From positions 1 through 43,668 of the forward strand of contig JAJFFU010000250.1 in NCBI GenBank assembly GCA_021776465.1: a stretch of DNA of 43,668 nt. The letters are read 5' to 3'. This stretch comes from Parvularculaceae bacterium (lineage in GTDB: Bacteria > Pseudomonadota > Alphaproteobacteria > Caulobacterales > Parvularculaceae). The translations under genes were made by a program, and so were the position numbers. Position 1 is the stretch's first letter. Every line of letters starts with the position of its first letter. Shown piece by piece: positions 4,493 to 31,849 of the stretch. The notes beneath the pieces are model-generated. The model saw only the letters and a program-made list of their open reading frames with translations, was not told the origin of the DNA and made no database searches.

Positions 4493-5419
4493 ATGGCTAA
4501 CGCTACCGTATCCTTTTCAGGTGAGTCTAACAACGATGGTGGAGGTAATACAGTATTGCACTTAAAAGTGTTTGCTGGAGAAGTCCTCACCGCGTTTGAA
4601 CAGGCCTCTGTTACCCGTGATAAGCATATGATTCGCTCTATCAAGTCAGGTAAATCGGCTCAGTTCCCACTCGTCTGGAAAAGTTCTAGTGCGTATCACA
4701 CCGCTGGAACTGAAATTGTAGGTACTGTAATCAACCATGCTGAAAAAGTTATCACCATTGATGGTCTGTTGATTTCTGACCACTTTGTTGGCAATCTTGA
4801 TGAAGCTATGAATCACTATGATATCCGCAACCTGTACGCTAAGGAAGCTGGTATTTCGCTGGGTACTCAGTGGGATAAGAACGTCCTACAGGAAGGTGTA
4901 CTCGGAGCACGTTCCAGTGCTATCGTAACTGGTGCAAATGGTGGTTCTTCGTTGACCAACGCTTCCTATGGCACGTCTGGTTCTGCCCTTGCCTCCGGTC
5001 TCTTTGACTCGGCTGAGCAGCTCGATGAAGCCAATGTACCAGAAGATAGTCGCTATATGTATGTGCGCCCTGCCCAGTATTACCTGATGGCAGAGACCAC
5101 TGATCTCATTAACCGAGATTGGGGTGGACGTGGTGCATTTGCTGAAGGTACCGTAATGAAGGTCGCCGGCATCCACGTCGTTAAGACGAACAACTTGCCG
5201 ATCACTGACCTCTCTGGCGCTACTTTCCATGGCGTTAACGCTTCGACCGTTAAGGCGCTTGTAATGCACCAGACCGGCGTAGCAACTGTTAAACTGCTCG
5301 ACCTCGCTATTGAGACCGAGTACGACATCCGCCGACAGGGTTGGTTAATCGTAGCTAAGTACGCTATGGGTAACGGCTTTGTACGCCCAGAAGCGTGTGT
5401 TGAATTGAAAACCTCTTAA
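4493..5419 (+). CDS. Major capsid protein, T7 gp10A-like
   Basis: A 308-residue HK97-fold capsid protein of the T7 type (gp10A is 344 residues). Characteristic blocks are LKVFAGEVLTAFEQASVTRDKHMIRSI (residues 24-50), KSAQFPLVWKSSS, ITIDGLLISDHFVGNLDEAMNHYDIR and the C-terminal RRQGWLIVAKYAMGNGFVRPEACVEL. It forms the icosahedral shell around scaffold and portal. Its own leader (249 bases) and the terminator downstream suggest high, separately controlled expression. No 10B-style extension directly follows it; the next gene starts 18 bases later with its own GGAAAGGA site. Confidence 0.95.
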   Translation: MANATVSFSGESNNDGGGNTVLHLKVFAGEVLTAFEQASVTRDKHMIRSIKSGKSAQFPLVWKSSSAYHTAGTEIVGTVINHAEKVITIDGLLISDHFVGNLDEAMNHYDIRNLYAKEAGISLGTQWDKNVLQEGVLGARSSAIVTGANGGSSLTNASYGTSGSALASGLFDSAEQLDEANVPEDSRYMYVRPAQYYLMAETTDLINRDWGGRGAFAEGTVMKVAGIHVVKTNNLPITDLSGATFHGVNASTVKALVMHQTGVATVKLLDLAIETEYDIRRQGWLIVAKYAMGNGFVRPEACVELKTS

Positions 5420-5437
5420 GGGAAAGGATATTAAATT

Positions 5438-6271
5438 ATGACTGATATTGCAAATATCCAGAACCTTGCGGTACCTGCTACTGTAGTTACCAACGTGGCG
5501 ATCCATCGGGTAAATGCCGATAATGCTACTGTTGGTACGTCGTTTGAGCCTATCACCAATTTGGATGCTGCACCTACCCGTCTCGCGACGGCTGGGGATG
5601 GTATCGAAATTGATGGTGCCTCTGGAACTGACGATGCTGCTGGCACAGGTGCTACCGAGGTAACGGTAAAAGGTCTGGACACAGCCTTTGCACCGAAGGA
5701 AGGGACCATTGCTACTGATGGTACCACGCCTTCTGAGCATTCTGCAACAGATTGGACCTTCGTCAATGAGATGTATATCTCGGGCGTGGGAACCGACCTA
5801 ACTTCTGCTGGCGTTTTGACGTTGCTTGACGACGCTGCTGGTGGTTCCTTAGGTCAGATTGACGCTGGGCAAGTAAACATGCAGAACTGTATGTGGAAAG
5901 TCCCGGCGGGTCACACTGGTTATATCAATGGATTCTGGTACAGTGTACTGCCTACCGCAGCCCCCGTTGGTGGCGTACGGTTTCAGTTGCAGATGTCCCA
6001 ACACGGGTTGCAGGGTGTAGTTAACTCTGAAACTTGGGAATCCCTTGCCGAAGTATACATGGACGAACCTGATAGTGATCTGGCGGCTACTGTTGCTGGT
6101 AAGCCTTCGGCTCCGTCCTACTTCGAGTTTCCGGGTGGACCGGTTGTAATTCCTGAGAAGGCCATCGTACAGCTCGCAGCTTTGGCTACGAGTACTGGCG
6201 CGGCTGTCTCTGGTGGTTTCAACATCATCATCCAAGGTTCTGGTGCAGGTACGACCACGACCGTTAATTAA
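5438..6271 (+). CDS. Putative virion structural protein (head decoration or fibre)
   Basis: A 277-residue protein, rich in Gly, Ala, Thr and Val, with the look of a beta-sandwich virion surface protein. Blocks such as EHSATDWTFVNEMYISGVGT and WKVPAGHTGYINGFWYSV resemble phage surface proteins whose strands pack into a trimeric jelly roll. It is 18 bases after the capsid gene and before the terminator, so it is likely made at capsid-like levels. That argues for a many-copy head or decoration protein, but I cannot assign a named family and the role is inferred. Confidence 0.65.
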   Translation: MTDIANIQNLAVPATVVTNVAIHRVNADNATVGTSFEPITNLDAAPTRLATAGDGIEIDGASGTDDAAGTGATEVTVKGLDTAFAPKEGTIATDGTTPSEHSATDWTFVNEMYISGVGTDLTSAGVLTLLDDAAGGSLGQIDAGQVNMQNCMWKVPAGHTGYINGFWYSVLPTAAPVGGVRFQLQMSQHGLQGVVNSETWESLAEVYMDEPDSDLAATVAGKPSAPSYFEFPGGPVVIPEKAIVQLAALATSTGAAVSGGFNIIIQGSGAGTTTTVN

Positions 6272-6277
6272 GACTGT

Positions 6278-6311
6278 GGGAGCCTCTTTCGGGGGGCTCC
6301 TAAGTTTTTTT
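6278..6311 (+). terminator. Rho-independent terminator after capsid cassette
   Basis: The stem GGAGCC (6279-6284) with GGCTCC (6295-6300), extended inward by two further pairs, is followed by TAAG and seven T residues at 6305-6311. It begins just after the stop at 6271. T7 has its only late terminator, T-phi, directly after the capsid gene; this is the same position, apart from the extra structural gene. Confidence 0.85.
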
Positions 6312-6325
6312 AGGAGAGTTATGAA

Positions 6326-6949
6326 ATGGCATTAAATGGAGATAAGTTAATTCTATCTCGCCAAGAAGGTGACTTCAAGACCTATAGGTATGATACTCTA
6401 GACTTGATAGCTACTGTTGAGGGTGCTGGGTATTTTACAAATACCTCTGGAGCCACAATTTGGGGAGATGTCCAAGTGCTTCTAGAGGCTGGGGACGCAA
6501 TAGAAGTCCATGTCTGGGATACTACTATCAGGACAGGTACTTTTTTAGAAAAGAAAGTGTATAGAGTATCAAATGTATTAAATAGAGTCTGTACGATTGT
6601 CCAAGCTGATGCAAGTCTAGTAATTGGTCCGGGCTCCACTGTTACGCAGATTACTAATAGGTCTACTGGAGTTACTATCAACTCTCTTAGTGGTCAAATC
6701 ACGACCGATGATACGTCTCTCGCAGCTGGAGCTCAGGCACTATTTTCTGTAAATAACAGTAAAGTAGAGGCAAATGATGTAGTTATGCTTTCCATCGCTG
6801 GTGGACAGACTGCGGGAACTACTTTTCCTTATGTCCATACTGTGGTTGCTGGGGCATTTGCTATTCTTTTGAGTAATCTAAGCAGCACTACAGCAGATAC
6901 CGGAGCAATGGTTATCAATTTTGTCGTGTTAAAAGGCGCCAGCTCGTAA
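6326..6949 (+). CDS. Virion structural protein with C-terminal beta-sandwich domain; upstream partner of the lyase frame
   Basis: A 207-residue protein starting at ATG 6326 with TAGGAGAG 9 bases upstream. The N-terminal half (about residues 1-105) is a beta-rich module of unknown family. The C-terminal half, from TNRSTGVTINSLSGQITTDD, belongs to a type common near the C-terminus of phage head and tail surface proteins, with the usual AAGAQALFSVNNSKVEANDVV and MVINFVVLKGASS ending. It stops at 6947-6949. A polysaccharide lyase frame without a start codon continues directly in the -1 frame, so a fraction of this protein may carry the lyase. Expression would be reduced by the terminator just upstream, fitting a minor virion protein. 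Confidence 0.7.
   Translation: MALNGDKLILSRQEGDFKTYRYDTLDLIATVEGAGYFTNTSGATIWGDVQVLLEAGDAIEVHVWDTTIRTGTFLEKKVYRVSNVLNRVCTIVQADASLVIGPGSTVTQITNRSTGVTINSLSGQITTDDTSLAAGAQALFSVNNSKVEANDVVMLSIAGGQTAGTTFPYVHTVVAGAFAILLSNLSSTTADTGAMVINFVVLKGASS
6928..6934 (+). promoter_or_regulatory. Candidate -1 ribosomal frameshift site
   Basis: The heptamer reads G TTA AAA in the frame of the upstream gene. Slipping back by one gives GTT AAA AGG and enters the lyase frame, which is open from 6877 and overlaps the upstream gene for about 70 bases. G-TTA-AAC is a known natural slippery heptamer (equine arteritis virus); G-TTA-AAA is close, and the AAA codon re-pairs perfectly. The two frames could instead reflect a one-base deletion or sequence error. 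Confidence 0.4.
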
Positions 6950-7731
6950 CGTCGTCTGCCACAATTTCTCCGGGCGTAAGTGAGAACTTCGAGTCTACTA
7001 CCCCCCTTAAAACTATCACACCTTTTGGGTGGAATTTTGAGACGGTCAGACCTGAAGCTCTATTTGTTACGACAGACCCCCTTGACCCAACTAATAAAGT
7101 TATGGGGGCTACTGTTAACGCTGGAGACGTGGTTAATGAGGGTGAACGCGCAGAAATTGCTTATCACGCGTTAGACTCCAAAGGGAACGAGCGGCTCTAT
7201 GAATGGGAGTGTTACCTCCCCACAGACTTCACTGATCCTGATCCCGGAGAATTTCTCCATGTGGCTCAGTGGCATGACTGGCCCGAAGACGGCGACTGGT
7301 CTGATTATCCACGTAATTCACCCTCTATCTCATGCGACTATGAGTATGTGGTAGTGAGTACATTAGATTCAAGTATTACAAATTACTTCGATACGTTCTT
7401 TCCGACATGGAATTCTTTAGTCATTGCTGATAGATTGCCAGTTTGGTTTGCAACGGTAGGTACAGAGGTTCCAAAGGAAACTATAGCTATTATCCCGTTT
7501 GCTAAAGGAACGTGGCAAAAGATAGGTTTCCAAATAAAATGGTCTTTCTCGGGATCAGGTGGACACGTTAAAGTGTTCCACAATAATACCTTGATTGGAA
7601 TTAGTACTGAGGACAATATGTATTTTGACTACCCTCACTTCTTTAAGTGTGGCGTATACAGGGCTCCTCAAGCCTTTTCACAGACTGTTTTATTTGATAA
7701 TATAAACATAGGAGCGGCTACAATATCGTAG
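6934..7731 (+). CDS. Polysaccharide lyase domain (heparin-lyase-like jelly roll) lacking its own start codon
   Basis: This frame resembles the Polysacc_lyase / heparin lyase I-like family. Visible blocks are GWNFETVRPEALFVTTDP, GDVVNEGERAEIAYH, HVAQWHDWP, RNSPSIS, IPFAKGTWQKIGFQIKWSF, GGHVKVFHNNT and HFFKCGVYR, in family order. The enzyme would cleave an acidic polysaccharide by beta-elimination, as a virion depolymerase. The first ATG in frame is 7102, but about 50 residues of recognisable domain lie upstream of it, it has no Shine-Dalgarno, and no ATG, GTG or TTG occurs in frame from 6877 to 7102. The protein is therefore probably made as a -1 frameshift extension of the gene at 6326, or the two are one gene broken by an indel. 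Coordinates begin at the possible slip. Confidence 0.65.
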   Translation, partial: RRQLVTSSATISPGVSENFESTTPLKTITPFGWNFETVRPEALFVTTDPLDPTNKVMGATVNAGDVVNEGERAEIAYHALDSKGNERLYEWECYLPTDFTDPDPGEFLHVAQWHDWPEDGDWSDYPRNSPSISCDYEYVVVSTLDSSITNYFDTFFPTWNSLVIADRLPVWFATVGTEVPKETIAIIPFAKGTWQKIGFQIKWSFSGSGGHVKVFHNNTLIGISTEDNMYFDYPHFFKCGVYRAPQAFSQTVLFDNINIGAATIS

Positions 7732-7757
7732 CTTCCTAATTAAGGAGTTTCAAACCC

Positions 7758-8312
7758 ATGGCGGATACAGCACGAACTATCACCGACCTAACGGCAAACC
7801 TATTTCAAGATGGGCAGTCGGCAGGGGCAATCTCACCTCAGGACATTAGAGACCTTATTACCTCCTTTAAGGCTGAGTGGGGTATGCTATACGTGTCGTC
7901 TCCAGCCACTAGTGGAGTCCTCGTAGCAGGTACCCACATCCTAGCAACTGGGACAAGCTCGGCTATCGGGACCCCTGTCAAGTACACAGCCTCTGCGGCT
8001 AACCGTTTGACCTATACTGGGACCCCAGATCGTACCGCTGTAGTCTTTTGCTCTACTTCGCTGGAATTAGATTCCGCTGCGGTGGACGACCAGTTGAGTA
8101 TGGCGCTGTATCTTAATGGTTCCCTCATCACGGGGACCACCATGCATAGCTATGCCAATGCTACCACGGCTACCGCCGCTAATGTTACCACGTTTGCTAT
8201 TCAGGACGTTTCTACCAATGATTACTTCGAGCCTTTTATCTCGAATTTGGATGCGACTTCTGCCGTAACTCCCAGAACTTTGGTTATGGGTGTCTTTAAT
8301 CTAGTTAAATAA
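7758..8312 (+). CDS. Putative virion structural protein (beta-rich)
   Basis: A 184-residue protein. The N-terminal DLTANLFQDGQSAGAISPQDIRDLITSF segment resembles a short helical adaptor found at the start of phage head or tail appendage proteins. The rest is Ala/Thr-rich and beta-stranded (YTASAANRLTYTGTPDRTAVVFCSTSLEL and following), like a TNF- or jelly-roll-type trimer. It has TAAGGAG 10 bases before the ATG and follows the lyase frame by 26 bases. Together with the two genes upstream it forms a surface-protein cassette inserted between the capsid and the tail tubular genes. The role is inferred from composition and position. Confidence 0.6.
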   Translation: MADTARTITDLTANLFQDGQSAGAISPQDIRDLITSFKAEWGMLYVSSPATSGVLVAGTHILATGTSSAIGTPVKYTASAANRLTYTGTPDRTAVVFCSTSLELDSAAVDDQLSMALYLNGSLITGTTMHSYANATTATAANVTTFAIQDVSTNDYFEPFISNLDATSAVTPRTLVMGVFNLVK

Positions 8313-8321
8313 GGCTGCTAA

Positions 8322-8936
8322 ATGACAACGAGACTTTCTCAAGTACCTCTTACCGAGCTTGACGTAGTTAACAAGATGCTGCGAGCTATCAAAGAGGAAG
8401 CCGTATCTGGACTCTCAGAACCAGTAACTCCAGATGTCGAGACCGCCCTCGGCATATTTAGTGACTTTAACATTGAGTTCCAAGATCAGGGCTGGCACTT
8501 TAACACAGAGTACAATGTTACTCTTGCTAGGGACGCTACCAACGAGATTGTCCTAGCACCTAATATCCTATCAGTTAAAGTCCCCTCTAGAGATATAGCT
8601 CTGAGGGGACTTAAGCTGTATGATAAGGCCAACAACACGTTTGTATTTACTCAGGACATCACTGATGCCTGTACCACAACCTTACTGGACTTTGACCAGC
8701 TCCCCTCCACGGCTAGAACCTATGTCTCTCAGGCATGTGCTAGACTGATGCAGGAGGAAGTGTTTACAGACCAGCTTGCAGAGCGTATTAATGTCGCTGA
8801 GGAGCAGAAGTCTTGGGCTTCCCTAGTAGATGATGAGGCTGAGCGCGCAGGCAGTAACATGGGCACGGGCAACATTGATATGTACGACACCATCCACAGG
8901 TACCGGGGGAGAACGTCTAATATATGGCTTCGATAA
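8322..8936 (+). CDS. Tail tubular protein A, T7 gp11-like
   Basis: A 204-residue protein matching T7 gp11 (196 residues). Family blocks are TELDVVNKMLRAIKEEAVSGL, a central FQDQGWHFNTEYNVTL, VKVPSRDIALRGLKLYDKAN, and LPSTARTYVSQACARLMQEEVFTD near the C-terminus. It forms the dodecameric gatekeeper ring between portal and nozzle and carries the tail fibres in T7. The last 13 bases overlap the next gene, tail tubular protein B, as expected for two proteins of one complex. Confidence 0.95.
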   Translation: MTTRLSQVPLTELDVVNKMLRAIKEEAVSGLSEPVTPDVETALGIFSDFNIEFQDQGWHFNTEYNVTLARDATNEIVLAPNILSVKVPSRDIALRGLKLYDKANNTFVFTQDITDACTTTLLDFDQLPSTARTYVSQACARLMQEEVFTDQLAERINVAEEQKSWASLVDDEAERAGSNMGTGNIDMYDTIHRYRGRTSNIWLR

Positions 8937-11419
8937 TTGAGGATATTCCAAACCTCGTTAACGGGGTTTCACAGCAAGCAGCTTCTCTGCGCTTTCCAAG
9001 CCAAGCCGAAGTACAGGAGAATGGGCTCTCCAAGATAGGTACGGGTTTAAAGAAGCGCCCACCTCTAGAGTACATCGCCAAGCTAACAGAGAACACTGAT
9101 GATCTGACCTTTGTCCATACCATCGACAGGGACGAAACTGAACAATACAAGGTAGTTATTACCTCCACACAGTTCGAGGAGCCCTTTTCTGAAGACTTCT
9201 CAAAGGGATCGTTACGCATCTTTGATATAGTGACTGGTGTAGAGCAGACTGTCACAGGCTTTTCTACTGACAATACCTATCTTAACAGCACCAATCCTAG
9301 AGACACCATCAGTATCCTTACCGTAGCTGACACATCCTTCATCCTAAATAAGAGTGTGGTAGTCGCCAAGGACTCATTGTTGAGTCCAGATAGAGCTCCA
9401 GAGGGGATCATGTTCCTAAAGTCCCCCACAGCCAACTCGAATCTAGACGTGTATGTTGATGGAGCTCTCGTAGCCACAATTGCTAGCGCAGATAGTAGAA
9501 CCGCTGTAGATAATTGGGATGCTGATCTAGCTGCTACTGGGATAAAGACAACGCACAACACGTTTAAAACCGTCTCATCTAACATATGGCTTACTAGGAA
9601 TGACAAACAGGACTTTGGCTTACATGCCACGGGCCCTGAAGCTAATGTAATAGCTTTCAAGGACACAGCAGACGCCGTTTCCTCTCTCCCACAGAAGACC
9701 AAGGATGGGTTTACCATCGAGATAGTGGGTGATACAGGAAGTGATGCCGATAACTACTGGGTTAAACATGTTAATCCTAACGATACCGGAACAGGTAAAT
9801 GGATTGAGACCGTGAAACCTGGCCTCACCAATAAGCTCGATGCGAGCACTTTACCTGTCAAGCTCATCAGGAATCCATTTGAGTCCTTTGCTGATCCCTT
9901 TAGTGAGGACTTTGGAACATCTGACTTCTCCATAGTGGACATCGAATGGGATGAAAGGGTAGCTGGAGATGAAACCTCTAACCCGGACCCCTCCTTTATA
10001 GGTGAGACGATCAATGATATCTTCTTCTATAAAAATAGGCTCGGACTCTTAGCTGGTGAGAATATCCTTCTCTCCGAGCTGGGTAACTTCTTCAATTTCT
10101 ACTTCACCACTCTGACAACTTTGCCAGCAACTGATCCTATTGATCTAGCAGCACCATCTAATCGTGTGTCTATTCTGGAGTCCGCCGTCCCGTTTGATGG
10201 GGGCCTGCTGCTGTTCTCAAACAACGCGCAGTTCTCTTTGCAGGAATCTTCCTCAGAGGGCCTCACACCTGAATCTGCCCGCTTAGATGAGATTTCCCAG
10301 TACGAGCATGAGTCCACCACCAAACCTATTCTGGTGGGAAGGAAAGTCTATTATGGAGAGAACAGAGACGGCTTTTCTACTATACGTGAGTTTGGCCTGA
10401 TTGAGGACCTCCAAGAGGAGACCGCTGAGGACATTACAGCTCACGTTCCTGCATATATAGATGGAACAGTTAGGCGCATTGCGTCGTCTGTTGCAAATAA
10501 TCTCTTATTTGTCCAGACTTCCGAGCGTCTCAATGAATTAGCAATCTACTCCTTTCTATGGGAGCGCGGTCAGAAGGTAGTTTCCTCATGGTCTAAGTGG
10601 ATTCTTCCTGAGGACGAGGCGTGGCTTGAAGTTGGTGTTATTGATTCTGTGGCCTATTTCGTTATCAAGCGCCCGGACGGCACTCACTTATCTAAGATGT
10701 CTTTGCAGGATAACAAACTATTTCTTGAGCGCCACGATAGTGCTGTTGAACTTGAATTTAAGCCCATGCTAGACTTCCAACAGTCCTCTATAGGAGTTTA
10801 TGATGAGGCTACCGAAGCAACTACTTGGACCCTCCCTTATTCTGACGACACCGTTGTTGGTGTATATGACTTCGGCTGGGGGGAGATAAGTGGAACCCGT
10901 GTAGAAGGCTTAACACTTCTGACTGGTCTAATTGACGTGTGGAGTTCCCCATTCTCTGATGAGTTTGGTGGAGCCGACCTCTATACTTCTATCTCTAAGG
11001 AGGGAAATCATGTCAGCAGCCCCATCACCTTTGGTCGGAACTATACACTAAAGTACCAGTTTACAGAGCCACATCTAACTGTCGATACCAATAACGGTGT
11101 CCAGAACGTCTCTGGGGACCGTCTCCATGTCCGAGACTTTGGGATCAGATATGAGAATACGGCTGAGTTTCTCTTACGGGTCAAGGCCCAAGGACGTACA
11201 TCCAGAGACTATCAGTTCAATGCTCGTATGCTTGGTAGCCCCAGTAACACCTTTGGAGCTGTTGTATTCGAGACTGGCTTGTTTAGGAAGCTAGTGATGT
11301 CTAAAAACCACAAACTAGAGCTAACAATAATTCATTCAGAGCACACTCCAGCCACTTTCCTGTCCGCGTTCTGGTCCGGGGAGTACTTCAGCAGAGCTCG
11401 TAATCGGAGATTAGGTTAA
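8924..11419 (+). CDS. Tail tubular protein B (nozzle), T7 gp12-like
   Basis: An 831-residue protein (T7 gp12 is 794). The N-terminal IEDIPNLVNGVSQQAASLRFPSQAEVQENGLSKIGTGLKKRPP block is a hallmark of the family, followed by WDERVAGDETSNPDPSF, FFYKNRLGLLAGENILLSE and the C-terminal GRNYTLKYQFTEPHLTV. Six copies form the tail nozzle through which DNA and core proteins leave. It starts inside tail tubular protein A (13-base overlap) and ends in a TAATG overlap with the next gene, so the tail and core genes are coupled. Confidence 0.95.
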   Translation: MASIIEDIPNLVNGVSQQAASLRFPSQAEVQENGLSKIGTGLKKRPPLEYIAKLTENTDDLTFVHTIDRDETEQYKVVITSTQFEEPFSEDFSKGSLRIFDIVTGVEQTVTGFSTDNTYLNSTNPRDTISILTVADTSFILNKSVVVAKDSLLSPDRAPEGIMFLKSPTANSNLDVYVDGALVATIASADSRTAVDNWDADLAATGIKTTHNTFKTVSSNIWLTRNDKQDFGLHATGPEANVIAFKDTADAVSSLPQKTKDGFTIEIVGDTGSDADNYWVKHVNPNDTGTGKWIETVKPGLTNKLDASTLPVKLIRNPFESFADPFSEDFGTSDFSIVDIEWDERVAGDETSNPDPSFIGETINDIFFYKNRLGLLAGENILLSELGNFFNFYFTTLTTLPATDPIDLAAPSNRVSILESAVPFDGGLLLFSNNAQFSLQESSSEGLTPESARLDEISQYEHESTTKPILVGRKVYYGENRDGFSTIREFGLIEDLQEETAEDITAHVPAYIDGTVRRIASSVANNLLFVQTSERLNELAIYSFLWERGQKVVSSWSKWILPEDEAWLEVGVIDSVAYFVIKRPDGTHLSKMSLQDNKLFLERHDSAVELEFKPMLDFQQSSIGVYDEATEATTWTLPYSDDTVVGVYDFGWGEISGTRVEGLTLLTGLIDVWSSPFSDEFGGADLYTSISKEGNHVSSPITFGRNYTLKYQFTEPHLTVDTNNGVQNVSGDRLHVRDFGIRYENTAEFLLRVKAQGRTSRDYQFNARMLGSPSNTFGAVVFETGLFRKLVMSKNHKLELTIIHSEHTPATFLSAFWSGEYFSRARNRRLG

Positions 11420-11973: not shown

Positions 11974-14820
11974 GTGCCAGAACAAGGATTAATGACCAGA
12001 GCTGGACGAATCGGTGGATTCAATAATAGGATACCCGCTATCAGTGGAGCTAACGCTAAGGTCGCGCAGAGCACTGCACAGCTGGAGGGCCTCAGCCAGC
12101 AATTCGGAGAGCTGGGAGACCTAGCTAGGAAGAAGAAAGTCCAGAGTGATATCATCACGGCCCGATTGGCGGTGGAGATGGAGCGGCAGATGCCGGGAGG
12201 CCTAGAGCCCGAGGCAGAACTCCACTTTGATAAGCTCACTGCTGAGAACTCCGCTAACAGCTTCATCACCCAGTTCACCCTCGACAACGACGCCAGAAGC
12301 TCCCTGATCCTCAAGAACGAGAATGGGGACTCCCCAGAGCAGCTTCAAGAGCTTTACGAAACCCAACTCGATGATGGTATGAATAGGTTCATTAAAGAGA
12401 GTGAGTTCTCTGGACACCAGATTGCCCATGTCGCGCCCCTCTTGGACACATACAAGACCACAGCTCGTAAAGCCTTTACCCAGACCCTTGTCAAGAACAT
12501 AGACGACACCAAGACTGCTGAGGGCAACGAGACCATCAAGGGCTCTATCGAGAACAATATTGTCCTACATAACGAACTAGAGTCTGTCGGAGAGGACAGT
12601 GACCTCACTACCTTATTTAGTGCCAAGTGGCATACCGACCTCCGCGCGAATCTCATGGAGGCTCTACCATACTTCAATAGGGATGAGGTTGACGAGCTGA
12701 TCGTAGAGAACCTCTCACAGATTGCCAGCGACCCAGACGACCCACAGCCGGACATCCTAGAGTACCTCGACAAGCCCCAGCCGGGTGAGCGCTTCCGCTT
12801 CTCGTCTGTCAAAGGCCTTGGGACGAAGATTGCTGCGGCTCAGCGTAAGGCTCGGCAAGCACTTATCGCCTCCGAGAAGTCTCGGGCCACACAGGAAACA
12901 CAAATATTAAAAGCAAAGCGAGACCAAGCTGATGGGAACGCCTCTGACTATGTGACTCTCCAGTTCGAGCAGGGCACCGCCGCGTCTAAAGACTTAGAGC
13001 TGCTGATGCGGAATGTGCAGCGCCTATTCCCTGATCTTGACCCAGCAGACGCTCGCGCCATTAGCACCAATGCAAACCAGCGTCTCAACTCCAAATCGTC
13101 CAGCCTATCCTCTCAGGCAAACTCTGCTGGTCTAATTGCAGACATTCAAAACGGAGACTTTCCTAACTTCGCTACCGTGCAGGCAGATTCTCGCTACAAC
13201 GAACTAGGTGGTAAGCAGTATGAGGATGTCTTCAGTACCTTCAACGAGTTCAAGAAGGGTAAGATTCAAAACGGACAGACGGTCCGAACTCAGCAGCGGG
13301 GTATGCTCAGAAAGAGCTTAGAAGCGGCTGTGACGCAGCGCTTGGACCCGGAGAACCCAGAGAAATTCATTCACCCCCTGACTGGTGCCATAATTAATCT
13401 GCCTCTTGACGAGCAGGAGCGGATTAATAACATCGTCTCCCAGTACGACCTACAAGCAGCCAACACGATCCAGAGGTTCAGTGACGACCCTAATAAGATT
13501 GATGATGCGCTGTTTAAACTCCGCACGGACATGATGAAGGGTATGCAGCTCAGCGAGGTAGGTGCAGAGGACTTCGGAGCAGATACCAGCCCAGATGAGA
13601 AGATCAAGGAATTGGCCCCCAGAGCTCCTGAGAAGCCTTCTGAGGTCCCTGAATCCACTCCAGCCAAACCTAAGGCTGTAGGCGGAGAAACAGAAGCTGA
13701 GCCAGATCAGGGCACCTCAAGCTCAGAGATATCAGCTCGCAACGCTGACTACATCCCGACTGAGCATGTCAAGACTGTTAACCTCCCAGCACGGCCCCTG
13801 CCGATGCAGGCTGAGATCAAGAAATCTATAAGTGCTCTACAGGGTCCGCCCGAGTTCGATCCTAATGTAGACATCGGCAGCGACGCGACCACGTTCTTAA
13901 GAGTAGATGATCCAGAACAACAGAAGATAATCGACGCTACCGTGAAAACTATGTCTGACGCTGGAGAAGCTCTCAGTAAGGGCTTGGCGGAGTCTCCTGA
14001 GGTATTCTCTCAGGGCATCAGCAACGCCATTGACTCTCTAGTGAATCTTGGAGACCAGCTCTCTGATGAGGTTGGAGCAGCAGCTCGGACCATTGGAAAG
14101 ACTTTACTGGAGAACGTTGTAAATCCGATAGTTAGCTCTGGAGCGACCCCCGCATTTGGGTTCGTTGACTCACAGGCGAGTTTAGGAGACAATTCGGAAT
14201 CCGAGCCTTCTGAGGAATTCCAAGCCAACGGTGTCAATGAGGTCGATATCACTGACCTAGGACAATTCACGGCTGGAAATCCTCGGGCTGCTGGGGAAGA
14301 CCCAAGAATCAAAGAAGGCTTCTTTGCTGAGGATAGGTTTGCAAAGGAGGCTCTAGACTCAATCCAGACTCTTGATGATGTAGGAGTCAGCACTCAGATT
14401 GTAGGTAAAAAACGAATAAAGAAGTCTAGGGGATTAAGAAACAACAACCCCGGCAACATCCGCATCTCCAAGATTAAGTGGAATGGGATGGCTAAGGACC
14501 AGCCTGACAAGTCCTTCGTGAAGTTCGAGACCCCCCAGAAGGGTATCCGGGCTATGCACAAGATTTTACAGACTTATAATAAGAAGCACAAGATTACCAC
14601 TATCGAGGGCATCATCAGTCGGTGGGCACCTCCGGTAGAGAACGACACAAAAGCTTACATCCAGAGCGTCGTACAAACTTCAGGTATCCCAGCTACTAGG
14701 AAACTGAATTTCAGTGATGCTAAAGAGATGTCGCAGGTAATGAAGGGGATTATCAAGCACGAAAATGCCTCCCAGCCATTCTCTGATGCAGAAATCATCG
14801 AAGGAATCAAGGAGAAATAG
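11974..14820 (+). CDS. Internal virion protein C (gp15-like) with a C-terminal peptidoglycan-hydrolase-type domain
   Basis: A 948-residue protein starting at GTG 11974, right after the previous TAA with GGGGAGAG 5 bases upstream; ATG 11992 is an alternative. Residues 1 to about 520 are helical, like T7 gp15 (747 residues). A Pro/Glu/Ser-rich linker follows. The last 140 residues, starting SRGLRNNNPGNIRISKIKW and including FETPQKGIRAMHKIL, IIEGIISRWAPPVENDTKAYI, resemble the lysozyme-like domain often annotated as virion structural protein P5. It would open the cell wall locally during DNA entry. In T7 the murein-hydrolysing domain is at the N-terminus of gp16, so the activity appears to sit on a different core protein here. 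Confidence 0.75.
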   Translation: MPEQGLMTRAGRIGGFNNRIPAISGANAKVAQSTAQLEGLSQQFGELGDLARKKKVQSDIITARLAVEMERQMPGGLEPEAELHFDKLTAENSANSFITQFTLDNDARSSLILKNENGDSPEQLQELYETQLDDGMNRFIKESEFSGHQIAHVAPLLDTYKTTARKAFTQTLVKNIDDTKTAEGNETIKGSIENNIVLHNELESVGEDSDLTTLFSAKWHTDLRANLMEALPYFNRDEVDELIVENLSQIASDPDDPQPDILEYLDKPQPGERFRFSSVKGLGTKIAAAQRKARQALIASEKSRATQETQILKAKRDQADGNASDYVTLQFEQGTAASKDLELLMRNVQRLFPDLDPADARAISTNANQRLNSKSSSLSSQANSAGLIADIQNGDFPNFATVQADSRYNELGGKQYEDVFSTFNEFKKGKIQNGQTVRTQQRGMLRKSLEAAVTQRLDPENPEKFIHPLTGAIINLPLDEQERINNIVSQYDLQAANTIQRFSDDPNKIDDALFKLRTDMMKGMQLSEVGAEDFGADTSPDEKIKELAPRAPEKPSEVPESTPAKPKAVGGETEAEPDQGTSSSEISARNADYIPTEHVKTVNLPARPLPMQAEIKKSISALQGPPEFDPNVDIGSDATTFLRVDDPEQQKIIDATVKTMSDAGEALSKGLAESPEVFSQGISNAIDSLVNLGDQLSDEVGAAARTIGKTLLENVVNPIVSSGATPAFGFVDSQASLGDNSESEPSEEFQANGVNEVDITDLGQFTAGNPRAAGEDPRIKEGFFAEDRFAKEALDSIQTLDDVGVSTQIVGKKRIKKSRGLRNNNPGNIRISKIKWNGMAKDQPDKSFVKFETPQKGIRAMHKILQTYNKKHKITTIEGIISRWAPPVENDTKAYIQSVVQTSGIPATRKLNFSDAKEMSQVMKGIIKHENASQPFSDAEIIEGIKEK

Positions 14821-23513: not shown

Positions 23514-23514
23514 T

Positions 23515-23542
23515 TTGACAAAAAGTTGCGAGGGTGTATACG
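23515..23542 (+). promoter_or_regulatory. Sigma70-like promoter at the late/early junction
   Basis: TTGACA at 23515-23520, a 16-base spacer and TATACG at 23537-23542. It starts 2 bases after the last late gene and points into the early side, so host RNA polymerase could start here on entry. A 5-bp hairpin TACGG/CCGTA overlaps the start region. Confidence 0.55.
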
Positions 23543-23584
23543 GTTCTGTAGCTCCGTAAAAAACCCCCCGTCACCCTATATAGA

Positions 23585-23611
23585 ACGCGGGCGCGGGCGC
23601 GTGTGGGCGCG
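23585..23611. repeat. Alternating G/C-rich repeat
   Basis: A run of GCGGGC-type units and alternating C-G steps (CGCGGGCGCGGGCGCG followed by TGTGGGCGCG), far more G+C-rich than the surroundings. A G-run/C-run hairpin (GGGG-CTA-CCCC) lies at about 23640-23650. Such sequence is prone to Z-form or strong secondary structure. It sits where the physical ends of the genome are expected. Confidence 0.6.
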
Positions 23612-23692
23612 TCATTAAGTCTTTTTCGGGGGCTTGGCGGGGGCTACCCCAAGCGAGGTATAGCGTCCTGGTAGCACATCGAGGGCTTTTGG

Positions 23693-23725
23693 AGTGCTGG
23701 TCAAGTGCTGGTCAAGTGCTGGTCA
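23693..23725. repeat. Three 11-bp tandem repeats (AGTGCTGGTCA)
   Basis: Exact copies at 23693-23703, 23704-23714 and 23715-23725. T7 carries arrays of a short repeat next to its terminal repeats, used at the packaging junction. By position (after terminase, before early promoters) this array may play the same part. A fourth, imperfect copy is inside the preceding gene at 23471-23481. Confidence 0.8.
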
Positions 23726-23761
23726 AGCGTGTGTGTGAGGGTAGGTGTATTACTTATTTTT

Positions 23762-23944
23762 TTAGTCATCGACGAAGCGCATCATATCAGCCTCACAATA
23801 TGGACATAGCTCTTGGATATCCTCACAAGTACAAACGCCGGGAGCTTGACAGCCGCAACAGGCTAGACCGTCGCCCCAGTGTACACAGTGCGTCTTATCA
23901 GCCCTTACCGGGCAGTATTCGTCCTTAGTGCCAGTGTCCATCAT
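23762..23944 (-). CDS. Cys-rich small protein, only minus-strand gene
   Basis: A 60-residue protein with nine cysteines and two histidines: EYCPVRADKTHCVHWGDG, ACCGCQAPGVCTC, and LCPYCEADM near the end. The spacing suggests two zinc-binding sites (CxxC and CxC/CCxC pairs). It begins ATG ATG; AAGGA lies 6 bases before the second ATG, a good ribosome site for a random antisense frame, so initiation probably uses 23941. All other genes point the other way. It lies inside the junction region with promoters and repeats, so it may be transcribed separately, perhaps before or after the main programme. Function unknown. Confidence 0.6.
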   Translation of the reverse strand: MMDTGTKDEYCPVRADKTHCVHWGDGLACCGCQAPGVCTCEDIQELCPYCEADMMRFVDD

Positions 23945-24043
23945 GGGTCCTTAGTTGGTGGATTAGTAGGGATAGACAATAGCCTATGATTATGCCTAGA
24001 ATGAAGTCCATTTATTTTTTTCTCCTTTTTATTGAAATAAAGC

Positions 24044-24070
24044 TTGACAAGCTCAGGGTGAGGCTATACA
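24044..24070 (+). promoter_or_regulatory. Sigma70-like early promoter
   Basis: TTGACA at 24044-24049 and TATACA at 24065-24070 (15-base spacer; TACATT with 17 is an alternative -10), 50 bases before the first early gene. The -35 is inside a short palindrome AGCTTG-A-CAAGCT. This is the expected site of the main early promoter read by host polymerase. Confidence 0.65.
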
Positions 24071-24120
24071 TTGTCTCTTAACACTAGCAGTAACCACTAA
24101 CAGGACTAGGAGGCCAGTCA

Positions 24121-30984: not shown

Positions 30985-30999
30985 ACAGAAAAATAATGG

Positions 31000-31027
31000 T
31001 TGACTATCCCTTAATAAGTGCTATACT
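31000..31027 (+). promoter_or_regulatory. Sigma70-like promoter inside a palindromic region
   Basis: TTGACT at 31000-31005, 16-base spacer, TATACT at 31022-31027: the best -10 box in the early region. The spacer is one arm of the inverted repeats described at 31008-31084, so its use is likely regulated. It would drive the tiny membrane peptide and the noncoding block that follows. Confidence 0.7.
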
Positions 31028-31084
31028 GGATTTATAGAGTGCTTCTCAGGACTTATAAAGCACTTATCAAATACTTATTAAGGG
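31008..31084. repeat. Nested inverted repeats over the promoter
   Basis: CCCTTAATAAGT (31008-31019) is perfectly complementary to ACTTATTAAGGG (31073-31084). ATAAGTGCT (31014-31022) is complementary to AGCACTTAT (31059-31067). The left arm overlaps, so only one stem can form at a time. A further AGTGCTT unit lies at about 31038. Between 30985 and 31186 there is no gene. It could be an operator, a replication origin or an RNA switch. Confidence 0.75.
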
Positions 31085-31186
31085 GGGAGAGGTGGTGGAC
31101 CCTCGATCTCTAGTCACTCGATGATCTAGTACCCAGTAATTAGTCTGGGTTACCTAAACTAGCCATCTAAGGAAAGGCTTGAAAAA

Positions 31187-31285
31187 ATGGACCCTATTAT
31201 ATGGGCAGTAATTGGAAAAGGTCTAGTTGGTTTCCTAGTAGGTTGGTTTACAGTGGACCTCATATTAAAATTTGTCAATAGGTAG
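31187..31285 (+). CDS. 32-residue membrane peptide
   Basis: ATG 31187 with AAGGAAAGG 9 bases upstream. The peptide is almost entirely one hydrophobic helix (PIIWAVIGKGLVGFLVGWF and on to DLILKFV) with a Gly-rich face (GKGLVG and LVGW), ending NR. It is the only gene between 30984 and 31850. Glycine-rich single helices can oligomerise in membranes. Unknown role; small size lowers certainty. Confidence 0.5.
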   Translation: MDPIIWAVIGKGLVGFLVGWFTVDLILKFVNR

Positions 31286-31849
31286 ACCGGGGGCTTAACC
31301 AGTCTCCTAAAAGGTATCTACCTTAATTATTTTCACTGGTCTACACTGTCCCAACCTTGGATAGTAGAGCCATCCCAGAGCATCGGGCGTGCTACTTAGG
31401 TGAGACGACCTAGACCTTCAAGGGGGTACTTGTAGAAGGATATATTAGAATTGGGATAAAGAAGAGAGGCGAGGGGGTAAAGGTTGTGAACCGAGTAGGT
31501 AGGGCCTAAAGTCCTTATACAGGGCCATGGTCGAAATCCGAAACATTTCGCTTGTATTACTTTCTAAGTTGTGTTACTCTAGCTTTATACCGGCTAAATA
31601 TCTGGTTTACAAAGTTGGGACGGCAGACGGGGAAACTAACTGTCAATTAGAGGGAAAGCCTAGCTCAGGTGAAAGCGGACCCTCTAATGAATGAAACCAA
31701 AATAGTCCTGTAAGATTATGCTCTAGTGTTTCCGGTTTCCCTTACCCCTAACTTATTTACGAACAGGACTATTACAGGGTTAATTGATTAAAACTTATTT
31801 AAGTATATATCAGCCCCTGTAATAGTCCGGCTTTAACGGAGTCCGAACC
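31286..31849 (+). ncRNA. Candidate structured noncoding RNA/leader block
   Basis: These 564 bases contain no good gene in a genome where genes otherwise overlap. Local stems are dense: ACCAGT/ACTGGT (31298/31335) enclosing AAGGT/ACCTT, TAGGT/ACCTA (31397/31408), CCTTC/GAAGG (31415/31435), CGAAA/TTTCG (31532/31546) and a 9-bp ATTAGAGGG/CCCTCTAAT stem (31646-31654 with 31680-31688). GGTCTA (31338) and TAGACC (31411) close a 79-base unit. The 3' end (31701-31828) is a three-part switch listed separately. It is downstream of the strong promoter at 31000, so it would be an early transcript. No Rfam family recognised. Confidence 0.5.
31701..31828 (+). promoter_or_regulatory. Three-segment competing-stem element before gene 31850
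   Basis: Segment A AATAGTCCTGT (31701-31711) pairs perfectly with ACAGGACTATT (31763-31773). The same central segment, as GGACTATTACAGGG (31766-31779), pairs perfectly over 14 bp with CCCTGTAATAGTCC (31815-31828). The two stems exclude each other. The second ends 21 bases before the ATG at 31850 and close to its ribosome site, so it may control translation or transcript stability. No T tract follows, so it is not a terminator. Confidence 0.6.

What the first reader, a model, noticed from the sequence alone, without database searches (positions are those of the whole stretch)
6877..7731. Polysaccharide lyase without a start codon, joined in the -1 frame to a virion protein
Seen: the lyase-like frame is open from 6877 to 7731 with no ATG, GTG or TTG before 7102, while recognisable lyase sequence begins near 6990. 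The upstream structural gene is open to 6949, so the frames overlap by about 70 bases, and the heptamer G-TTA-AAA (6928-6934) lies in the overlap in the right phase for a -1 slip. Inference: a small share of a surface protein carries a depolymerase, analogous to T7 10A/10B, giving a stochastically displayed enzyme. A single-base deletion or read error is the plain alternative.
Basis: partly seen in the sequence, partly recalled or inferred. Interest (0 to 1): 0.75.

Follow-up and report, generated by a model that had tools for sequence, protein, structure and literature searches.

The report
Phage lyase gene with odd start
A T7-like phage carries an intact gene for an enzyme that cuts sugar chains but has no ordinary start codon; it more likely begins, at an unusual codon, right on the stop codon of the gene before it than by the ribosomal frameshift first proposed.

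Summary
Frame 6877-7731 encodes an intact polysaccharide lyase (PF14099, E 7.8e-21) with no ATG/GTG/TTG before 7102, where a start would remove three predicted strands. It is the outlier among 53 plus-strand frames.

The frameshift is not excluded but finds no special support. A relaxed in-phase heptamer is expected by chance in 38% of such overlaps, and two occur here. RNA around the site folds no better than shuffles. In 85 of 85 examined relatives of the upstream protein it ends at the same place, and 0 of 85 shows a long -1 frame lacking a nearby start.

I prefer a separate gene whose first codon shares one base with the upstream stop (TAACG, 6947-6951). Eight of 22 late junctions of this phage have that overlap, with ATG or GTG. 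Coding signal rises there. But the codon is ACG and the Shine-Dalgarno is poor, so expression would be weak; a lost or miscalled start stays open. Upstream gene plus lyase are an insertion absent from 36 of 36 comparable relatives. A read-level check or one peptide would decide.

The parts
5438..6271 (+). p277, gene before the insertion; followed directly by p184 in relatives
   Evidence: 36 of 36 loci that hold MCP, tubA, p277 and p184 matches have p277 and p184 63-99 nt apart
6277..6302 (+). terminator-like hairpin behind p277, T-run to 6312
   Evidence: one found by scan, but shuffles give 2.3 on average, so not above chance by itself; similar hairpins by eye in the eight relatives' intergenic stretches printed
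6326..6949 (+). D207, first gene of the inserted pair; probable virion or fibre-like protein
   Evidence: ORF; C-terminal half phrog_18251 E 4.4e-25
6611..6946 (+). C-terminal domain of D207, shared with many phages
   Evidence: 85 loci, all ending within 8 codons of the match end
6877..6948 (+). lyase frame, open but not coding-like upstream of the D207 stop
   Evidence: codon log-odds -2.54 over 24 codons
6928..6934 (+). heptamer G-TTA-AAA in phase for a -1 slip
   Evidence: rate of such heptamers 249 of 12,685 codon positions
6931..6936 (+). weak Shine-Dalgarno-like AAAAGG, 12 nt before ACG
   Evidence: -3.4 kcal/mol, weaker than 37 of 38 gene starts; 38% of random positions do as well
6947..6951 (+). 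TAACG: D207 stop and proposed first codon of the lyase sharing one base
   Evidence: same one-base overlap with ATG/GTG at 8 of 22 late junctions
6949..7731 (+). lyase gene as proposed here (260 codons and stop)
   Evidence: coding signal from 6949: +3.23 (6949-6990), +9.1 (6991-7101), +39.4 (7102-7728)
6985..7728 (+). polysaccharide lyase jelly-roll domain
   Evidence: PF14099; PDB glucuronan lyase A E 1.4e-10 by profile; 2zzj best fold match
7102..7104 (+). first canonical start in the lyase frame; inside the domain, no Shine-Dalgarno
7758..8312 (+). p184, gene after the insertion

Best explanation
The lyase is a separate gene, the second of a two-gene insertion (D207 + lyase) between p277 and p184 of a T7-like phage. 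Its first codon lies on the D207 stop and shares one base with it (TAACG, 6947-6951). Ribosomes that finish D207 restart there (termination-reinitiation); because the codon is ACG and the Shine-Dalgarno is poor they do so rarely, so little lyase is made per D207. The product is a free jelly-roll lyase without an evident signal peptide (by eye), released at lysis or bound to the virion without a covalent link. Shown: gene boundaries, lyase homology, insertion, absence of a canonical start, the phage's one-base-overlap habit. Inferred: that the gene starts at 6949, that ACG is used, that coupling drives it, and where the enzyme acts. Of the confidence below, about 0.30 goes to a working ACG start and about 0.25 to a start at this place that is polymorphic, lost or miscalled in this assembly; the tools cannot separate the two.
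For: D207 ends where its family ends: 85 of 85 relatives stop within 8 codons of the match end, 50 of 85 with the tail GASS as in D207. In 56 of 85 an ATG shares one base with that stop (53 of these open 40 or more codons, one, L127, only 4). This phage has the one-base overlap at 8 of 22 junctions between 122 and 22897. Codon log-odds change from -2.54 before 6949 to +3.23 just after. No ATG/GTG/TTG exists before 7102, and homology and predicted strands lie upstream of 7102. The insertion is absent from 36 of 36 comparable relatives. Overlapping stop and start codons give coupling by termination-reinitiation in bacteria and archaea (PMC6728339, abstract and passages).
Against: ACG is a very poor start: 0.1-1.5% of ATG in one E. 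coli RFP library, whose authors warn of context effects (PMC6925171, passages). The Shine-Dalgarno is weaker than at 37 of 38 gene starts. The other one-base overlaps of this phage use ATG or GTG. ACG at this place is weak evidence: the codon must begin with A, and 6 of 16 A-codons lie one base from ATG. Most of the 56 relatives with an overlapping ATG carry one small downstream gene, not a lyase; by cluster it is 14 of 32 (window among the 18 others). Codon usage cannot tell 6949 from a slip five codons earlier. No close relative of the lyase was found to show its natural start. A startless conserved gene is rare, 1 of 381, which speaks equally against a lost, miscalled or near-cognate start.
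Confidence: 0.55

Rival explanations
1. Programmed -1 frameshifting at G-TTA-AAA makes a small amount of a D207-lyase fusion that is displayed wherever D207 sits, much as T7 makes 10B.
For: The heptamer is in phase. G_UU(A) is listed as a real X_XX in equine arteritis virus, (G_UU)A_AAG has been seen to shift, and T7 gene 10 uses the likewise imperfect G_GU; T7 depends on a CCCC more than 200 nt downstream, so lack of a nearby structure is not fatal (PMC5009743, passages). The whole overlap is open, and T3/T7 capsid genes are precedents in the same kind of phage.
Against: In-phase NXXYYYZ occurs at 249 of 12,685 codon positions here, giving 0.38 for at least one in 24 codons; two are present. 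Four RNA windows around and after the site fold less stably than shuffles (z +1.01 to +1.72). A_AAA_AAA-type sites are reported as much less shifty in E. coli than A_AAA_AAG. 0 of 85 relatives of the D207 domain show a long -1 frame without a nearby start: 4 of 85 have 80 or more codons there, each with ATG or GTG within 35 nt of the stop (4 of 85 loci have under 240 nt after the stop), and none carries a C-terminal extension.
Confidence: 0.22
2. An in-frame D207-lyase fusion has been broken by a single-base indel, in the phage or in the assembly.
For: The frames overlap and a one-base change somewhere in the overlap would join them; the reads are not available.
Against: The D207 stop sits exactly at the terminus shared by its relatives (85 of 85 end within 8 codons of the match, 50 of 85 with the same GASS tail); an accidental stop would rarely fall there. 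No relative examined extends the domain C-terminally.
Confidence: 0.05
3. The lyase is made from the internal ATG at 7102 or from another near-cognate codon such as ATT at 6964.
For: 7102 is the first canonical start and leaves 209 codons; ATT at 6964 is 15 nt behind the stop codon and could be reached by a terminated ribosome.
Against: No Shine-Dalgarno at 7102 (+0.7 kcal/mol) or 6964 (+0.6). 7102 is residue 52 of the model, after three predicted strands and inside the fourth, and 51 coding-like codons lie before it (log-odds +12.33).
Confidence: 0.09

Closest known systems
Gene pairs with a one-base stop/start overlap, coupled by termination-reinitiation
   Same: Next frame is -1 and shares the last base of the stop; the same layout occurs at 8 of 22 late junctions of this phage
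   Different: Codon is ACG, not ATG/GTG/TTG, and the Shine-Dalgarno is weak
Phage T7/T3 gene 10A/10B (-1 frameshift extending a virion protein)
   Same: T7-like phage, virion-gene region, -1 frame, in-phase heptamer
   Different: Not the capsid gene; the extension would be a whole enzyme; no evidence of slippage; the layout is equally explained by a separate gene
Polysaccharide lyases PF14099 / glucuronan lyase A of Trichoderma reesei (2zzj) and heparin lyase I
   Same: Profile match over positions 18-210 of 210, PDB profile hit and best fold hit
   Different: About 21-26% identity to its bacterial relatives; in a phage; substrate untested
Putative glucuronan lyase gene of an Acinetobacter guillouiae prophage (PMC12507336, passages)
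   Same: A phage-borne lyase of IPR025975, which I recall to be the InterPro entry of PF14099
   Different: Prophage in a named bacterium; the passages say nothing of an unusual start or of a D207-like neighbour
phrog_18251 (function unknown)
   Same: D207 residues 93-207, E 4.4e-25, ending with the protein
   Different: D207 has a different N-terminal half

Membership tests
Polysaccharide lyase PF14099 | Profile score above the curated cut-off | tested here: met
   75.4 bits against 29.9
Polysaccharide lyase PF14099 | Lyase activity on a uronate polysaccharide | not testable with these tools
   Conserved R, Y, QWHD and K-x-G-x-Y positions are kept in alignment A4; their catalytic role is recalled, not tested
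Programmed -1 frameshift gene (T7 10A/10B type) | In-phase slippery heptamer in the overlap | tested here: met
   GTTAAAA 6928-6934, but chance probability 0.38 and a second heptamer is there too
Programmed -1 frameshift gene (T7 10A/10B type) | Stimulatory element | tested here: inconclusive
   No local RNA structure (z +1.01 to +1.72); distant elements as in T7 not tested
Programmed -1 frameshift gene (T7 10A/10B type) | Arrangement conserved in relatives | tested here: not met
   0 of 85 relatives of the D207 domain; no relative of the pair was found, so the test is on the upstream protein only
Programmed -1 frameshift gene (T7 10A/10B type) | Fusion product made | not testable with these tools
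   Needs proteomics
Stop/start-coupled gene pair | Downstream frame begins on the upstream stop codon | tested here: met
   TAACG 6947-6951; coding signal from 6949
Stop/start-coupled gene pair | Canonical start codon at the overlap | tested here: not met
   ACG, so it is not filed as an ordinary member
Stop/start-coupled gene pair | Shine-Dalgarno inside the upstream gene | tested here: inconclusive
   -3.4 kcal/mol, 12 nt away, weaker than 37 of 38 gene starts
Lambda-type head decoration protein (PF02924) for D207 | Profile score above cut-off | tested here: not met
   13.6 bits against 29.1; no such protein among the 50 fold matches listed of 450
T7-like phage (autographivirus) | Portal, capsid, tail tubular A and nozzle homologues in T7 order | tested here: met
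T7-like phage (autographivirus) | Single-subunit phage RNA polymerase | not tested
   The early region was not searched for it

The most novel reading that the evidence does not exclude
Ribosomes slip at G-TTA-AAA in a small share of passes and make a D207-lyase fusion, so that a few copies of a small virion protein of a T7-like phage carry a polysaccharide lyase: a stochastically displayed enzyme outside the tail spikes.
Probability: 0.22. Interest if true: 0.65.

Novelty: new variant of a known kind. Interest (0 to 1): 0.36.

Why it matters
If the gene works as sequenced, it is an intact phage enzyme gene that a gene caller limited to ATG/GTG/TTG would cut short or miss, expressed at a low level either from a coupled ACG start or by frameshifting; in both cases the dose of a lyase would be tied to a neighbouring gene. 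The lyase has no relative found in the phage and viral collections searched here, although a prophage lyase of the same kind is in print (PMC12507336). If the start is merely lost or miscalled, the case shows that a startless frame behind a natural stop is not evidence of frameshifting.

Tried and rejected
Close relatives of the lyase, to see its natural start: single-sequence scan of viral contigs (6 pattern stretches, 0 confirmed), alignment scans (44, 0 confirmed; 23, 0 confirmed), tblastn of phages and plasmids: none. Only distant bacterial relatives: 12 of 61 pattern stretches in genome contigs; 3 of 398 genomes of the phylum, one of them the window's own; 1 of 60 near relatives, again the own; by family PF14099, 12 of 200 genomes including the own, 5 over the cut-off.

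DNA relatives of 5438-9000 in phages: none. D207 in 62 genomes of the host family: own only. Frameshift support sought and not found: local RNA structure, conservation. A GTG at 6980 in another frame was considered as a start: it would need a frame change inside the lyase, and that frame is not coding-like (log-odds -10.15). Lambda-D identity of D207 dropped. Weak fold matches of its C-terminal domain (tailspike 4ru5, depolymerase 9k4a, cyanophage tailspike 7eea, Helix pomatia lectin 2ccv; all E > 0.008; only residues from about 104 on are well predicted) are a lead only. NCBIfam: nothing for four proteins.

Literature. No paper of the library holds all of 'programmed frameshift', 'decoration protein', 'phage', 'capsid'. 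Five hold 'ACG start codon' and 'phage'; listing only, and no title concerns a phage ACG start. Nine hold 'glucuronan lyase' and 'phage', of which I read passages of two. Passages of the depolymerase review PMC6966330 speak of tail spikes, not of this arrangement. Listings only: apart from the papers named. Hecht et al. 2017 is not held and was not read.

Full report
What is there. The window is contig C168 of a 250-contig assembly and is a T7-like phage: portal (PF12236), major capsid protein (PF21703), tail tubular A (PF17212) and nozzle (PF25675) in the usual order. Its capsid protein is 50% identical to that of phage LUZ100, the best of the named phages listed, and up to 72% to viral contigs. 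A phage RNA polymerase was not looked for. Between capsid and tail genes stand p277 (5438-6271), D207 (6326-6949), the lyase frame (6877-7731) and p184 (7758-8312).

The lyase frame is open for 284 codons and has no ATG, GTG or TTG before 7102. Pfam gives PF14099 at E 7.8e-21. A profile of the lyase with 12 bacterial relatives finds glucuronan lyase A in the PDB at E 1.4e-10, then heparin lyase I at 6e-7; the predicted fold's best match is the same glucuronan lyase (2zzj, Foldseek E 6.8e-10, TM 0.56; mean pLDDT 71, weak at 136-175). Homology starts at about 6985-6993. Position 7102 is residue 52 of the model, after strands 10-12, 28-32 and 38-42 and inside 50-56, so it is a poor place to start. 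Startless genes are rare: 1 of 381 conserved structural-gene copies in fetched relatives lacked a canonical start within 12 codons of the expected place, and that one may be an alignment effect.

D207 and the lyase are an insertion. Of 63 loci with both capsid and tail tubular A matches (own copies left out), 36 have p277 and p184, always 63-99 nt apart; 15 have p184 only and 12 neither. Among 104 loci the lyase was found in the window's own two only, and D207's domain only in own loci and in five fetched for that domain. The pair stands behind a terminator-like hairpin; one such site was found in 5400-8400 where shuffles give 2.3, but the eight relatives printed have, by eye, a similar hairpin at the same place.

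The upstream gene ends where its family ends. In 85 of 85 the protein stops within 8 codons of the end of the match, in 50 of 85 with the tail GASS as in D207. So the D207 stop is natural; this speaks against an indel-broken fusion and makes a separate downstream gene the simple reading.

Where the lyase may start. In 56 of the 85 loci an ATG shares one base with that stop; 53 of these open 40 or more codons, L183 31, L192 30 (cut by the locus end), L127 only 4. By cluster at 85% nucleotide identity it is 14 of 32, the window being among the 18 others. Most of these are one small gene (MG..AFRR by eye); L125 and L138 carry other genes. None is a lyase, so this is support by analogy. In this phage itself 8 of 22 junctions from 122 to 22897, or 8 of 49 in the hand-picked ORF chain, have the one-base overlap: at 1384, 1665, 3440, 11419, 14820 (GTG), 20227, 20463 and 22676. 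The lyase frame stands in just that relation to D207, and its codon there is ACG (6949-6951). That an A-codon at this place resembles ATG is itself weak evidence: 6 of 16 A-codons differ from ATG by one base. Codon usage agrees with coding from there: log-odds -2.54 for 6877-6948, +3.23 for 6949-6990, +9.1 for 6991-7101, against -14.8 and -37.81 for the other two frames over 51 codons. It cannot tell 6949 from a slip five codons earlier.

Against an efficient start: the Shine-Dalgarno-like AAAAGG pairs at -3.4 kcal/mol, weaker than at 37 of 38 gene starts and equalled by 38% of 3000 random positions, and ACG gave 0.1-1.5% of ATG in one E. coli reporter library whose authors say that such values vary with context (PMC6925171, passages). 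Overlapping stop and start codons do give coupling by termination-reinitiation (PMC6728339, abstract and passages; PMC12548453, passages), but the passages I saw do not treat ACG. So the start is either weak by nature, or polymorphic, lost or miscalled; the tools cannot separate these.

The frameshift. G-TTA-AAA is in phase, and related sites are on record: G_UU(A) in equine arteritis virus, (G_UU)A_AAG, and the imperfect G_GU of T7 gene 10 (PMC5009743, passages). But relaxed in-phase heptamers occur at 249 of 12,685 codon positions of the ORFs used, so 24 codons hold at least one with probability 0.38; two are present. Four RNA windows around and after the site fold less stably than shuffles (z +1.01 to +1.72). 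In 0 of 85 relatives does a long -1 frame without a nearby start follow the domain: 4 of 85 have 80 or more codons there, each with ATG or GTG within 35 nt of the stop. T7 itself depends on a distant element, so the slip stays possible; I give it 0.22.

What it probably does. The lyase has no evident signal peptide (by eye) and sits among late genes, so it would act at or after lysis, or on the virion, cutting a uronate-containing polysaccharide near the host. This is inference from fold and position. D207 may be a fibre-like virion protein: its C-terminal domain matches a fibre protein of Acinetobacter phage Hep4 at 31% identity and weakly resembles phage tailspike parts and a snail lectin (all E > 0.008). 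It does not reach Pfam's cut-off for the lambda D family. A phage-borne putative glucuronan lyase is already in print, in an Acinetobacter guillouiae prophage (PMC12507336, passages), so the enzyme in a phage is not new in kind.

Verdict. A real and odd gene with a probably ordinary layout and an abnormal start, not shown to be a frameshift. Interest is moderate; a read-level check or one peptide would settle it.

Noticed in passing
window 1384, 1665, 3440, 11419, 14820, 20227, 20463, 22676: This phage uses one-base stop/start overlaps unusually often in its late region (8 of 22 junctions).
   Followed up: yes
window 6611-6946; L002-L005, L015, L121-L200: The C-terminal domain of D207 is shared by T7-like phages, cyanophages and many other viral contigs with different N-terminal parts, always at the C-terminus in the loci examined; function unknown, perhaps a fibre-tip or lectin-like domain.
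   Followed up: partly
L128, L146, L159 and similar loci, behind the D207-like domain: A small gene (about 44-57 codons, MG..AFRR by eye) repeatedly starts on the stop of the D207-like gene; the tail of the upstream gene seems to carry its Shine-Dalgarno.
   Followed up: no
window 7001-7006: A run of six C lies in the lyase N-terminus; homology continues in the same frame on both sides, so it does not explain the missing start.
   Followed up: yes
window 30985-31849 and 23514-24120: Stretches without a chosen plus-strand ORF of 70 or more codons, or with one weak frame only; contents not examined.
   Followed up: no
window 11974-14820: The C-terminal part of this large late protein holds a motif (NNNPGNIR) that I recall from peptidoglycan-degrading virion proteins; not tested.
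   Followed up: no
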